Positions 20,507 to 25,632 of a DNA stretch of 32,805 nucleotides are shown here, in pieces. The translations under genes and the position numbers were made by a program. The notes below the pieces were generated by a model. It worked only from the letters and a program-made list of their open reading frames with translations, was not told the origin of the DNA and did not search any database. How positions within the stretch are numbered: the stretch's first letter is position 1; every line of letters begins with the position of its first letter. The DNA comes from Clostridia bacterium (GTDB lineage Bacteria > Bacillota > Clostridia > Christensenellales > UBA3700): contig JAIDRT010000003.1 of NCBI GenBank assembly GCA_029061605.1, positions 1-32,805 of the forward strand, read 5' to 3'.

Positions 20507-21586
20507 ATGAAAAAAGTTTATCTTATTCTTGAAAACGGTAAGGTCTTTGAAGGCGAGTCGATCGGCATTGAAGGCGAAGTAATCGGCGAAGTAGTCTTTA
20601 CCACTGCAATGACAGGATATCTTGAGACTTTGACAGACCCAAGTTATTACGGTCAGATAGTTTGTCAGACCTTTCCGCTGATAGGTAACTACGGTGTTAT
20701 TGAAGAGGACTTTGAGTCTCCCATCAGCGCAGTCAAGGGATATATCGTCAGAGATATATGCGACGAGCCGTCCAACTTCCGCTCACAAGGCAAACTTGAC
20801 GATATGCTCAAGAAGTTGGGCGTAATAGGTATCTGCGGAATAGACACCAGAGAACTTACCAAGATAGTCAGAGAAAGCGGCGTTATGAACGGAATAATTA
20901 CTGACAAGCCCACGCTCGACAAAGAGCAAAAGACAGCATTGAAAGAATACGTCATTGAAGGCGCAGTCAAGAGCGTGTCTTGCAAAGAAAAGAGAGTGGT
21001 ATGCAACGTCAAAAAACCTAAGAAGAGAGTTGCGCTCCTTGACTACGGTATCAAGAGAAATATCATAGAGAAGTTGGCGAGAAGAGGCTGCGAGGTCACG
21101 GTATTCCCGCACGATACTTCGGCAGAAGAGATAATCGAGTTCAATCCCGACGGCATTATGCTTTCCAACGGTCCGGGCAATCCTGAAGAAAACGTATATG
21201 AGATAAAGCAAATCAAAAAACTTGTCAAGAGCGGCATACCAATGTTTGGTATCTGTATCGGACATCAGTTGCTTGCTCTTTCTCAAGGCGCAAAGACGTA
21301 TAAACTCAAATACGGTCACAGAGGCGGAAACCAACCAGTCAAGGACCTTGCAACAGGCAGAGTATACGTATCTACGCAAAATCACGGATACGCAGTCGAC
21401 CTTGACACTCTTCCAAAGAATGCTCAAGTGACTTTTGTCAACGTCAACGACGGCACTTGCGAAGGTATCAATTATAAGAATTCAAACGTATTTTCGGTTC
21501 AGTTCCACCCAGAGGCTTGCGCAGGACCGCTTGACACAGGATATTTGTTTGACAGATTTATGGAGAATATGGAGGAGAGAAAGTAA
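20507..21586 (+). CDS. carA: Carbamoyl-phosphate synthase small subunit
   Basis: This is the glutaminase subunit supplying ammonia to CarB for carbamoyl phosphate, used for pyrimidines and arginine. The N-terminal CarA domain (LILENGKVFEGESIG, FTTAMTGYLETLTDPSY) is followed by a class I amidotransferase domain with LSNGPGNPEE, the nucleophile in FGICIGHQLLAL and the His/Glu pair in VQFHPEA. At 359 aa it is of usual length. An AGAGG site precedes the ATG by 6-7 nt, and the gene begins 16 nt after the ANTAR gene. Its TAA overlaps the ATG of carB by one base, indicating coupled translation. Confidence 0.96.
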   Translation: MKKVYLILENGKVFEGESIGIEGEVIGEVVFTTAMTGYLETLTDPSYYGQIVCQTFPLIGNYGVIEEDFESPISAVKGYIVRDICDEPSNFRSQGKLDDMLKKLGVIGICGIDTRELTKIVRESGVMNGIITDKPTLDKEQKTALKEYVIEGAVKSVSCKEKRVVCNVKKPKKRVALLDYGIKRNIIEKLARRGCEVTVFPHDTSAEEIIEFNPDGIMLSNGPGNPEENVYEIKQIKKLVKSGIPMFGICIGHQLLALSQGAKTYKLKYGHRGGNQPVKDLATGRVYVSTQNHGYAVDLDTLPKNAQVTFVNVNDGTCEGINYKNSNVFSVQFHPEACAGPLDTGYLFDRFMENMEERK

Positions 21587-24500: not shown

Positions 24501-25632
24501 CAAGTCGGCAGGTCTTGACGTAATTGAAGTCAACAAGATACACCAAAATTCAAAGGATAATACGCTTACGCTCATTGAGTCGGGCAAGATAGATTATATC
24601 ATATCTACGTCCTCAAAGGGTAAGTTGCCGACGCGCGACAGCGTTAAGATAAGAAGAAAGGCTGTCGAGAGAGCCATTCCTTGCTTGACGTCAATAGACA
24701 CGGCAAATGCAGTCGTCAATTCTTTGATGAGCAGATATTCGCAATACAATACCGAACTTATTGATATCAACAAATTGAGAGAAGGAAGAAGTATTCGCAA
24801 GTTTACCAAGATGCAAGGCACTGGCAACGACTATATCTACTTCAACTGTATTGGCAATCCTATTGTCAATCCTGAAGGCTTGGCAGTCAGACTGTCTGAC
24901 AGACACTTCGGCGTGGGCGCAGACGGCGTTATATTGATATGCGATAGCCAAGTCGCAGACGTCAAGATGAGAATGTTCAACGCTGACGGCAGCGAGGGTA
25001 AGATGTGCGGCAACGGTATCCGTTGTGTGGCGAAGTATTGCTATGACAATGCTATCGTCAACAAAAAGCAAATGACCATTGAGACTTTGAGCGGTATCAA
25101 AAACGTGGAAGTTAGTACGCAAAACGGTGTGGCAAAACTCATCACTGTTGATATGGGCAAGGCAGAACTTGCGCCTAAGAAAGTTCCCGTCAAGTTGGAG
25201 GGCAAGAGCGTAATCAATCAGTCAGTCAAGATTGACGGCAAAGATTACGACATCACTTGCGTATCTATGGGCAATCCGCATTGCGTGGTATTTGTAAAGA
25301 ACGTGGAAAATCTCAATATCGCAAAGATAGGCAAAGCATTTGAAGAAAGTCCGTTGTTCCCTGAGGGCGTCAACGTTGAATTCGTCAAAGTGATTGACAA
25401 GCGTACGCTCAAGATGAGAGTATGGGAGAGAGGCAGCGGGGAGACGTGGGCGTGCGGAACTGGCGCTTGCGCAGTCGCAGTAGCGGCAGTGCTCAACGGA
25501 TATTGCAACAAAGATGAAGAAATCAGCGTCAAATTGCTCGGCGGAGACTTGACTGTCAAGTATGCCCAAGACGATACTGTATATATGACAGGCGGCGCTG
25601 TAAAAGTATACGACGGAGAGGTGGAAGTATGA
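21586..25632 (+). CDS. carB-dapF: Carbamoyl-phosphate synthase large subunit fused to diaminopimelate epimerase
   Basis: Residues 1-~1065 are a full CarB: two homologous synthetase halves, each starting with a VxGSGPIxIGQ motif (about residues 11 and 554) and ATP-grasp domain, then the MGS-like allosteric domain (about 935-1060). Residues 1072-1348 are a full-length DapF (277 aa) starting KFTKMQGTGNDYIYF, with both catalytic cysteines, C1141 in MCGNGIRC and C1290 in ACGTGACA. DapF turns LL- into meso-diaminopimelate for lysine and peptidoglycan. The reading frame is unbroken, and there is no start codon or ribosome site at the junction that would yield a complete separate DapF. I know of no standard CarB with this partner. 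It overlaps carA by 1 nt and pyrG by 4 nt. Confidence 0.95.
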   Translation: MPLNSKLQKVMVIGSGPIVIGQAAEFDYAGTQACRALKEAGLEVVLVNSNPATIMTDNAIADRIYIEPLTLTTVKRIIEKERPDSLLSTLGGQTGLTLSMQLAKEGFLDKMGVTLLGARVDTIDKAEDRQMFKDTLAEINEPTIPSEVVNDIENAVRVAEEIGLPVIIRPAFTLGGSGGGIAYTQDEFLEIAENGLRTSPIHQILVEKCISGWKEIEFEVIRDSKGNAITVCSMENFDPVGVHTGDSIVIAPAVTLADKEYQMLRSAALKIVEALKVEGGCNCQFALDPNSFEYAVIEVNPRVSRSSALASKATGYPIAKVATKIAIGYTLDEIQNAVTGNTFACFEPSIDYVVVKFPKWPFDKFFYASRKLGTQMKATGEVMAIGVTFEQAIMKAVRGAEISHNTLNDKKFEKYSDERLLEKIYDVDDERIFVIYEALKRGVSVDEIFNITKIDRWFLYKLQKLIAMQNALKSETLTDELYLKAKKMGFLDSTIEEFSGQKIKNVRYASYKMVDTCAAEFAAMTPYFYSTFDDENEAREFIDNKKSDKKKVIVFGSGPIRIGQGIEFDYASVHCVWALKRKGYEVIIVNNNPETVSTDFDTADRLYFEPLTNEDVMSIIKTEQPYGVVVAFGGQTAIKLTKMLKEQNIKILGTQAEYIDMAEDREKFDELLENLNIKRPQGFTIMTKEEALKVANEIGYPTLLRPSYVLGGQNMTVCHSDADVIEYMDVILSQKIENPVLIDKYLMGIEIEVDAICDGEDILIPGVMQHVERTGIHSGDSIAVYPSWNIGDEMLARIEECSKQLAVNLHTIGLVNIQYLIYQNELYVIEVNPRSSRTIPYISKVTGVPMVDLATRAILGEKLADMGYGTGIYPNSPYVAVKVPVFSFEKLTNVDTQLGPEMKSTGEVLGIATTLEEALYKGLVAANYKMKKKGGIFISVRNQDKDEIGEIGQKFEELGYTLYATAGTAEILKSAGLDVIEVNKIHQNSKDNTLTLIESGKIDYIISTSSKGKLPTRDSVKIRRKAVERAIPCLTSIDTANAVVNSLMSRYSQYNTELIDINKLREGRSIRKFTKMQGTGNDYIYFNCIGNPIVNPEGLAVRLSDRHFGVGADGVILICDSQVADVKMRMFNADGSEGKMCGNGIRCVAKYCYDNAIVNKKQMTIETLSGIKNVEVSTQNGVAKLITVDMGKAELAPKKVPVKLEGKSVINQSVKIDGKDYDITCVSMGNPHCVVFVKNVENLNIAKIGKAFEESPLFPEGVNVEFVKVIDKRTLKMRVWERGSGETWACGTGACAVAVAAVLNGYCNKDEEISVKLLGGDLTVKYAQDDTVYMTGGAVKVYDGEVEV

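What the first reader, a model, noticed from the sequence alone, without database searches (positions are those of the whole stretch)
21586..25632. CarB and DapF encoded as one polypeptide
The frame runs unbroken from a complete carbamoyl-phosphate synthase large subunit, including its allosteric MGS-like domain, into a complete diaminopimelate epimerase with both catalytic cysteines (C1141, C1290). No complete DapF could start separately at the junction. The two enzymes serve different pathways (pyrimidine/arginine versus lysine/peptidoglycan), so the fusion may co-regulate them, place DapF under the CarB allosteric domain, or simply fix stoichiometry within a glutamine-responsive operon. I know of no described CarB-DapF fusion.
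Basis: partly seen in the sequence, partly recalled or inferred. Interest (0 to 1): 0.8.

Follow-up and report, generated by a model that had tools for sequence, protein, structure and literature searches.

The report
Pyrimidine enzyme fused to wall epimerase
One gene in this bacterium encodes the large subunit of carbamoyl-phosphate synthase (the enzyme that starts pyrimidine and arginine synthesis) joined to a diaminopimelate epimerase, predicted to make a cell-wall building block; the same fusion is in many related bacteria, and in several lineages the epimerase half has lost a catalytic cysteine while most of these keep the residues that hold the ligand, so it likely also serves as a sensor that would tune the synthase.

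Summary
In detail: 21586-25632 is one open frame of 1348 codons, a full CarB followed by a full DapF, without a likely separate start for DapF. It is no sequencing error: full length in 13 of 17 genomes of the genus sample, fused in at least 120 of 396 of the order, 57 of 391 of the class, 18 of 378 of the phylum, and in Ruminococcus albus. In this genome it is the sole DapF and no meso-DAP dehydrogenase was found, so it is predicted to be bifunctional. The new point: in 84 of 164 fused genomes the DapF half has lost a catalytic cysteine (15 changes of state on the tree), and 80 of those 84 have another source of meso-DAP. Yet the half stays attached, stays under purifying selection, and keeps all six DAP side-chain contacts in 69 of 86 such domains. 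It therefore seems to have a role that outlives catalysis; I propose DAP-responsive control of the synthase. That is inferred. The association is not significant once relatedness is allowed for (8 independent pairs), and a purely structural role is not excluded.

The parts
21586..24735 (+). CarB part, residues 1-1050 (two ATP-grasp halves, oligomerisation domain, MGS domain)
   Evidence: NCBIfam PRK05294.1 1500.6 bits over 1-1050; Pfam CPSase_L_D1/D2/D3 and MGS
24433..24690 (+). MGS-like (allosteric) domain, residues 950-1035; the residue equivalent to E. coli Asn1015 is Ser1007
   Evidence: Pfam MGS 67.5 bits; alignment to 1a9x; Asn in 17 of 17 unfused CarBs, in 0 of 116 two-cysteine fusions
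24736..24798 (+). linker, residues 1051-1071 (YSQYNTELIDINKLREGRSIR), of nearly constant length in the fusions aligned
   Evidence: model block pLDDT 65-82
24799..25629 (+). DapF part, residues 1072-1348, only DapF found in this genome
25006..25008 (+). codon of catalytic Cys1141 (first cysteine; Ala, Ser or Gly in many relatives)
25453..25455 (+). codon of catalytic Cys1290 (second cysteine)
20507..21586 (+). carA, glutaminase subunit; its stop overlaps the carB start (TAATG)
   Evidence: NCBIfam PRK12838.1 491.5 bits; sequence
19879..20490 (+). ANTAR-domain regulator
   Evidence: Pfam ANTAR 60 bits
18557..19858 (+). glutamine synthetase-like protein (below the GlnA equivalog cut-off)
   Evidence: TIGR00653 330.4 bits against a cut-off of 429.15; Pfam Gln-synt_C
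25629..27236 (+). pyrG, CTP synthase; its start overlaps the fusion's stop (ATGA)
   Evidence: NCBIfam PRK05380.1 849.1 bits; sequence

Best explanation
The gene encodes one chain in which a complete carbamoyl-phosphate synthase large subunit is followed by a complete diaminopimelate epimerase, and it likely works as a bifunctional enzyme whose epimerase tail would also act as a DAP-binding regulatory module of the synthase. Shown: the frame is unbroken, both halves carry the family signatures, and the tail is the only DapF found in the genome. Inferred: with CarA it makes carbamoyl phosphate, while the tail turns LL-DAP into meso-DAP for lysine and for a DAP-type wall (the genome's MurE has the DNPR motif). 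Inferred further: closing of the DapF cleft on DAP is passed through the short linker to the MGS domain next to it and changes synthase activity, tying carbamoyl-phosphate (pyrimidine and arginine) supply to wall-precursor supply. In lineages that have another meso-DAP source the tail often lost its first cysteine but stayed attached, mostly with its DAP contacts, which is what one expects if a sensing role remained after catalysis became dispensable.
For: Unbroken frame and domains. Sole DapF, no meso-DAP dehydrogenase match in G000, MurE with DNPR (motif meaning recalled). Fusion in 27 of 59 genomes full length, at least 120 of 396 of the order, 57 of 391 of the class, 53 of them outside the order, 18 of 378 of the phylum, 16 outside the class (counted by hand from listed rows, lists cut at weak matches, frames cut by contig ends included). 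Whole-genome check of 120 fused genomes: both cysteines and no stand-alone dapF 49; a cysteine lost and stand-alone present 57; lost and none 9; both cysteines and stand-alone 3; lost with only fragments of a second dapF 2. With 46 more named genomes and meso-DAP dehydrogenase counted (118 + 46 = 164): an alternative meso-DAP source in 80 of 84 cysteine-lost and 33 of 80 two-cysteine genomes. Lost domains are not decaying: dN/dS of the DapF part median 0.085, range 0.011-0.185, 12 usable of 14 pairs; two-cysteine pairs 0.044, 26 usable of 32. All six DAP side-chain contacts kept in 69 of 86 lost domains, 114 of 114 two-cysteine ones and 52 of 61 rows labelled stand-alone; contacts from Anabaena DapF (PMC12039745, passages), placed by the alignment to 9mro. 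The MGS nucleotide site is altered in fusions: Asn1015-equivalent Asn in 17 of 17 unfused CarBs, Ser or Cys in 116 of 116 two-cysteine fusions; Lys993-equivalent (crucial for UMP binding, PMC6245113, passages) kept in 116 of 116 two-cysteine but 33 of 87 lost fusions. Precedent: E. coli DapF without both cysteines still binds and activates RppH (PMC4227774, passages).
Against: No biochemical data. The link between a lost cysteine and another meso-DAP source rests on about 15 changes on the tree, and every test on independent pairs is not significant: with all columns 8 supported pairs, same way 3.2, other way 0.6, no difference 4.2, median p 0.375 (for stand-alone dapF alone 2.2, 0.5, 5.3, p 0.625); with the MGS+linker columns only 5 pairs, p 1; in the order set alone 4 pairs, p 1. 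In the 50 named genomes the association is weak: two cysteines/none 20, two cysteines/stand-alone 7, lost/none 8, lost/stand-alone 11; Fisher p 0.037. Four lost genomes (G371, G208, G292, G430) show no other source, and 33 of 80 two-cysteine genomes have one. Ten DAP-pocket positions are kept little better than other core sites in lost domains (mean 0.936 against 0.900), so a structural reason could suffice. The Thr1017-equivalent of the MGS site is not conserved in unfused CarBs either. The models give no firm packing of DapF on MGS (pTM 0.73 and 0.66). Some genomes lack the fusion and any DapF and live with an unfused CarB (G007, G020, G025 and others).
Confidence: 0.5

Rival explanations
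1. Structural dependence: after an accidental fusion CarB came to need the DapF fold for stability or oligomer state, so the domain cannot be dropped, whether or not it binds DAP.
For: Core sites other than the ten pocket positions are kept nearly as well (0.900) as these (0.936) in 86 lost domains; the lost domain of L148 is predicted as a full DapF fold (9mro_A TM 0.92 by target length); linker length is nearly constant. DapF is a dimer in solved structures (recalled), so it could set CarB's oligomer state.
Against: Polar ligand contacts in a pocket that binds nothing should relax first; 69 of 86 keep all six while Cys1141 (2% kept) and Gly1078 (27% kept) changed. Genomes of the same family do with an unfused CarB.
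Confidence: 0.27
2. Convenience fusion: a carB-dapF gene pair lost the stop between them; joint expression or fixed ratio is the only benefit and the halves do not influence each other.
For: Unfused neighbours carB then dapF exist (L142-L145, order pyrG-carA-carB-dapF). In the window the tail is a normal two-cysteine DapF and the only one found.
Against: A tail without catalytic cysteine has no epimerase to co-express, yet it is kept in 84 of 164 fused genomes with dN/dS about 0.085.
Confidence: 0.18
3. Two proteins after all: DapF is also made from an internal start in the linker, so the long chain is only one product.
For: 23 of 119 fused genes keep an ATG four codons before the conserved Phe, 76 of 119 have some ATG in the 12 codons before it, and 15 of 119 have a start with a Shine-Dalgarno-like run of 4 or more.
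Against: The position four codons before Phe is freely replaced by Gln, Ile, Val, Thr and others; the window has no ATG or GTG there.
Confidence: 0.04
4. Assembly or sequencing error at the junction.
For: None found; the genome is a 75-contig assembly.
Against: Same open frame in 27 of 59 genomes and in records not titled as metagenome bins, such as Ruminococcus albus strain KH2T6 and Neglectibacter sp. X58.
Confidence: 0.01

Closest known systems
CarB, carbamoyl-phosphate synthase large subunit (E. coli 1a9x, 1bxr; NCBIfam PRK05294.1)
   Same: Aligned 1-1042 to E. coli 1-1049, 1055.8 bits; carA just upstream.
   Different: A DapF of about 277 residues added after the MGS domain; Asn1015 and Thr1017 of the E. 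coli MGS site are Ser1007 and Ser1009.
DapF, diaminopimelate epimerase (Anabaena 9mro, A. thaliana 3ejx, E. coli 4ijz)
   Different: Encoded here only as the C-terminal domain of CarB; in many relatives the first cysteine is Ala, Ser or Gly.
DapF-RppH complex of E. coli (PMC4227774; 6d13)
   Same: DapF acts on another enzyme independently of its epimerase activity (passages read).
   Different: There a free protein bound to a Nudix hydrolase; here covalent and on CPSase, effect untested.
CAD and CPS1, multifunctional or effector-gated CPSases (recalled; human CPS1 6uel among matches)
   Same: CPSase fused to further modules and gated through its C-terminal domain (recalled).
   Different: Partners there are other steps of the same pathway or glutaminase; none is an epimerase of another pathway (recalled).

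Membership tests
CarB (PRK05294.1 / TIGR01369) | score over curated cut-off along the whole family length | tested here: met
   1500.6 bits, cut-off 599; 1465, cut-off 1027
CarB (PRK05294.1 / TIGR01369) | partner glutaminase subunit carA beside it | tested here: met
   carA 20507-21586, 491.5 bits; just upstream in 61 of 66 named loci with enough flank
CarB (PRK05294.1 / TIGR01369) | canonical UMP site in MGS (E. coli Thr977, Lys993; Asn1015 recalled) | tested here: inconclusive
   Thr968 and Lys984 kept, Asn1015 replaced by Ser1007; roles of Thr977 and Lys993 from PMC6245113 passages
CarB (PRK05294.1 / TIGR01369) | makes carbamoyl phosphate | not testable with these tools
   needs assay
DapF (TIGR00652) | score over curated cut-off | tested here: met
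   304.4 bits, cut-off 114.65; a cysteine-less relative also passes (L148 261.8 bits), so the model does not test catalysis
DapF (TIGR00652) | two catalytic cysteines | tested here: met
   window: Cys1141, Cys1290. Not met in the 86 relatives of the lost group: those are not filed as epimerases here
DapF (TIGR00652) | DAP side-chain contacts (Anabaena Asn13, Asn66, Asn164, Asn197, Glu215, Arg216) | tested here: met
   Asn1081, Asn1132, Asn1230, Asn1263, Glu1281, Arg1282
DapF (TIGR00652) | converts LL-DAP to meso-DAP | not testable with these tools
   needs assay
DAP-sensing regulatory domain (proposed) | binds DAP and changes CPSase activity | not testable with these tools
   inferred from retention after cysteine loss

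The most novel reading that the evidence does not exclude
A carbamoyl-phosphate synthase that senses the cell-wall precursor diaminopimelate: an epimerase captured at its C-terminus first served as the cell's DapF and, in lineages where another meso-DAP source arose, turned into a catalytically dead, DAP-binding control domain beside an MGS site that in parallel lost its usual nucleotide contacts. It would be a direct wire between peptidoglycan supply and pyrimidine/arginine supply in a large group of clostridia-like bacteria.
Probability: 0.35. Interest if true: 0.9.

Novelty: new variant of a known kind. Interest (0 to 1): 0.78.

Why it matters
Two textbook enzymes of different pathways are one protein in a large group of bacteria, including a cultured Ruminococcus species, and the database names seen mention only the first. 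Where the fusion is the only DapF, loss or inhibition of one protein would hit both pathways, and an annotation that lists dapF as missing would be wrong. Where the cysteine is gone, the equivalog model still calls it an epimerase, which would likely be wrong the other way. If the domain senses DAP, it gives a testable route by which bacteria match nucleotide and wall synthesis, an open question of cell physiology.

Tried and rejected
Sequencing or assembly error: rejected. A second dapF elsewhere in this genome: none found. An RNA element in the operon: no Rfam match at gathering score in the window. An internal start conserved across fusions: not found. That cysteine loss marks a decaying domain: rejected by dN/dS. 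That the cysteine is replaced by one specific residue, as in the hydroxyproline dehydratases (recalled): not so, Ala 39, Ser 22, Gly 22, Phe 1, and 2 of the 86 keep Cys1141 but have lost Cys1290. Single clean origin: the DapF tree interleaves fused and stand-alone copies (fewest 7 changes between fused and stand-alone; 40 uniform groups under midpoint rooting; quick trees), so gain, loss and exchange cannot be ordered. Literature: searches (2 papers; 2; 51, of which 12 shown; 8; 2) list no paper that by title and abstract start is about this fusion; I opened only PMC8225329 of these (passages: its 'carB' is carbenicillin); one search found none on a DapF pseudoenzyme. Only open-licence PMC papers are searched. 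Domain packing: pTM too low to place DapF against MGS.

Counting notes: one search showed at least 122 fused genomes; 120 went into, G014 and G367 (contig ends) were left out. Of 80 named loci, 50 went into; in the joint table I dropped L106 (truncated), L042, L090 and L121 (same genomes as G010, G167, G268, judged by equal contig coordinates) and the two genomes with dapF fragments (G039, G216); L042, L090 and L121 are counted. Among the 61 rows labelled stand-alone one (L089) is a truncated fused copy. One search has 116 and 87 rows because near-identical rows were not removed there. The 80 named loci are the best 80 of 559, picked by likeness to a fused junction, so '80 of 80 fused' is not a rate. 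The order, class and phylum counts include this genome.
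Full report
Observation. The frame 21586-25632 is open over 1348 codons. Residues 1-1050 are CarB at 1500.6 bits (cut-off 599), residues 1072-1346 DapF at 304.4 bits (cut-off 114.65), with the Pfam domains of both. Cys1141 and Cys1290 sit where solved DapFs have their conserved cysteines (codons checked). The junction offers no ATG or GTG start near the beginning of DapF. The genome (G000, 2.08 Mb, 75 contigs, 97% complete) has no other PF01678 gene and no match to meso-DAP dehydrogenase TIGR01921. 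Its MurE carries DNPR, which I recall as the mark of meso-DAP-adding MurE. So the tail is predicted to be the only route from LL-DAP to meso-DAP.

Setting. The gene lies in a run glnA-like, ANTAR protein, carA, carB::dapF, pyrG on one strand, with TAATG between carA and carB and ATGA between the fusion and pyrG. Among the named loci with enough flank, carA is just upstream in 61 of 66, an ANTAR gene upstream in 25 of 53, glnA in 11 of 53, pyrG just downstream in 23 of 70. The ANTAR-glnA part is therefore not tied to the fusion; carA is its usual partner.

Distribution. Full-length open fusion in 27 of 59 genomes, 13 of 17 of the genus; at least 120 of 396 genomes of the order; 57 of 391 of the class by listed rows, 53 of them outside the order, in 27 families; 18 of 378 of the phylum, 16 outside the class. 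In the protein database, 6247 of 7988 scored candidates, taken by the tool's length rule (0.55 to 1.75 times 1348 residues), match the DapF part at E 1e-3 or better; the 120 listed bear CPSase and DAP_epimerase domains, and those with a name are called carbamoyl-phosphate synthase large subunit. Named carriers include Ruminococcus albus KH2T6 (L071), Ruminococcus sp. FC2018 (L063) and Neglectibacter sp. X58 (L101). The linker has nearly the same length throughout the 119 fused genes lined up (8 more had no clean motif and were left out).

The surprise. In an alignment of 197 fused proteins the first cysteine is Cys in 157, Gly in 16, Ala in 16, Ser in 6, Phe in 1 and missing in one truncated row. 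I then asked, genome by genome, whether another DapF exists. In 120 fused genomes of the order: both cysteines, no stand-alone 49; cysteine lost, stand-alone present 57; lost, none 9; both cysteines and stand-alone 3; lost with fragments of a second dapF 2. Of 56 stand-alone DapFs fetched, 55 keep both cysteines. In 50 named genomes: both cysteines/none 20, lost/stand-alone 11, lost/none 8, both/stand-alone 7, 3 two-cysteine cases with a second fused copy or a fragment, 1 truncated. Of the 17 'lost, none' genomes of both sets, 13 have meso-DAP dehydrogenase over cut-off, which bypasses DapF. In the joint table of 164 genomes, another meso-DAP source exists in 80 of 84 lost and 33 of 80 two-cysteine genomes. 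Fisher tests (4.6e-20 and 0.037) ignore kinship. On a tree of the MGS+DapF part without the cysteine columns there are 15 changes of state at the fewest, but only 8 well-supported independent pairs; the trait goes the expected way in 3.2, the other way in 0.6, median p 0.375; other versions of the test do no better. The direction is right, the test has no power.

Why the domain is kept. The cysteine-lost DapF domains are under strong purifying selection: dN/dS median 0.085 in 12 usable pairs, 0.044 in 26 two-cysteine pairs. One of them, L148, is predicted to keep the fold (mean pLDDT 90.7, best matches DapF 2otn and 9mro). They keep ligand residues: Asn1132, His1232 and Gly1291 in 86 of 86, Asn1230 97%, Asn1081 and Glu1281 95%, Asn1263 90%, Arg1282 87%, while Cys1141 is kept in 2% and Gly1078 in 27%. 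All six side-chain contacts remain in 69 of 86 lost, 114 of 114 two-cysteine and 52 of 61 stand-alone rows, so lost domains keep them about as often as the stand-alone ones. The contact list is that of Anabaena DapF (PMC12039745, passages). Against over-reading: other core sites are kept at 0.900, ten pocket positions at 0.936, all sites at 0.58. In the neighbouring MGS domain the residue equivalent to E. coli Asn1015 is Asn in 17 of 17 unfused CarBs but Ser or Cys in all 116 two-cysteine fusions and not Asn in 80 of 87 lost ones; Lys993, crucial for UMP binding (PMC6245113, passages), has its equivalent kept in all 116 two-cysteine but 33 of 87 lost fusions and 15 of 17 unfused. That Asn1015 contacts UMP is recalled; the Thr1017 position varies in unfused CarBs too.

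Mechanism. Shown: one open frame, complete halves, sole DapF, recurrent loss of a catalytic cysteine with the domain retained. Inferred: bifunctional catalysis in the window; a second role of the tail for CarB. I commit to DAP-responsive control: DapF closes over DAP (open and closed forms are described in PMC12039745, passages), and the tail is tethered next to the allosteric domain, whose own nucleotide site has changed. That a DapF can control another enzyme without catalysis is known: the double cysteine mutant of E. coli DapF binds and stimulates RppH (PMC4227774, passages). Loss of one cysteine is expected to stop or greatly slow epimerisation: the double mutant is inactive (same source) and single Cys-to-Ser mutants of the related histidine racemase are greatly reduced (PMC11602996, passages).

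A possible series of stages. L093, L103, L104 and L109 have carB::dapF with both cysteines and a separate two-cysteine dapF behind it, within 1.7 kb. Their fused domains form one group of seven (support 100) with those of L101, L111 and L112, which have lost the cysteine and whose genomes have a stand-alone dapF elsewhere. This looks like hand-over of catalysis to a separate gene followed by loss in the fused copy, though I did not show that the separate genes of the two sets are the same gene. Unfused pyrG-carA-carB-dapF neighbours in g4 genomes (L142-L145) coexist with a cysteine-lost fusion in the same genomes.

Verdict. The fusion is real, widespread and, as far as the open literature could be searched, undescribed. 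In the window it is most likely a bifunctional enzyme; seen across relatives, its DapF half likely has a second, non-catalytic role. That role is the open question and can be tested directly.

Noticed in passing
L142-L145 (G024, G028, G032, G034): A second, unfused set pyrG-carA-carB-dapF, CarB about 50% identical to the window's fused one, in genomes whose fused DapF half has Ser for the first cysteine.
   Followed up: partly
L093, L103, L104, L109: carA (not on the contig in L109), carB::dapF (both cysteines), then a separate dapF within 1.7 kb; in all four pyrG follows downstream.
   Followed up: partly
G007, G020, G025, G026, G041, G042, G045: No DapF match and an unfused CarB; 6 of these 7 have meso-DAP dehydrogenase over cut-off (G026 does not).
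   Followed up: partly
window 18557-20490: glnA-like gene followed by an ANTAR protein at the head of the operon, reminiscent of the glnA-linked ANTAR regulator of clostridia (recalled); RNA target hairpins were not searched for beyond an Rfam scan without hits.
   Followed up: no
window 15491-18394: Large surface-type protein with partial likeness to the leucine-rich-repeat adhesin HupY/LrrG (210.8 bits, cut-off 1250).
   Followed up: no
window 28017-28865: Bro-N domain protein with weak likeness to DinD (Bro-N 51.4 bits; DinD 28.9 bits, cut-off 242), next to a Cro/C1-type HTH gene at 27541-27876.
   Followed up: no
L188 (G035): A stand-alone DapF-like protein in which both catalytic cysteines are Ser while the DAP contacts are kept.
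   Followed up: no
L088 and L074 genomes (G422, G452): Two copies of the fused gene in one assembly; could be paralogues or mixed bins.
   Followed up: no
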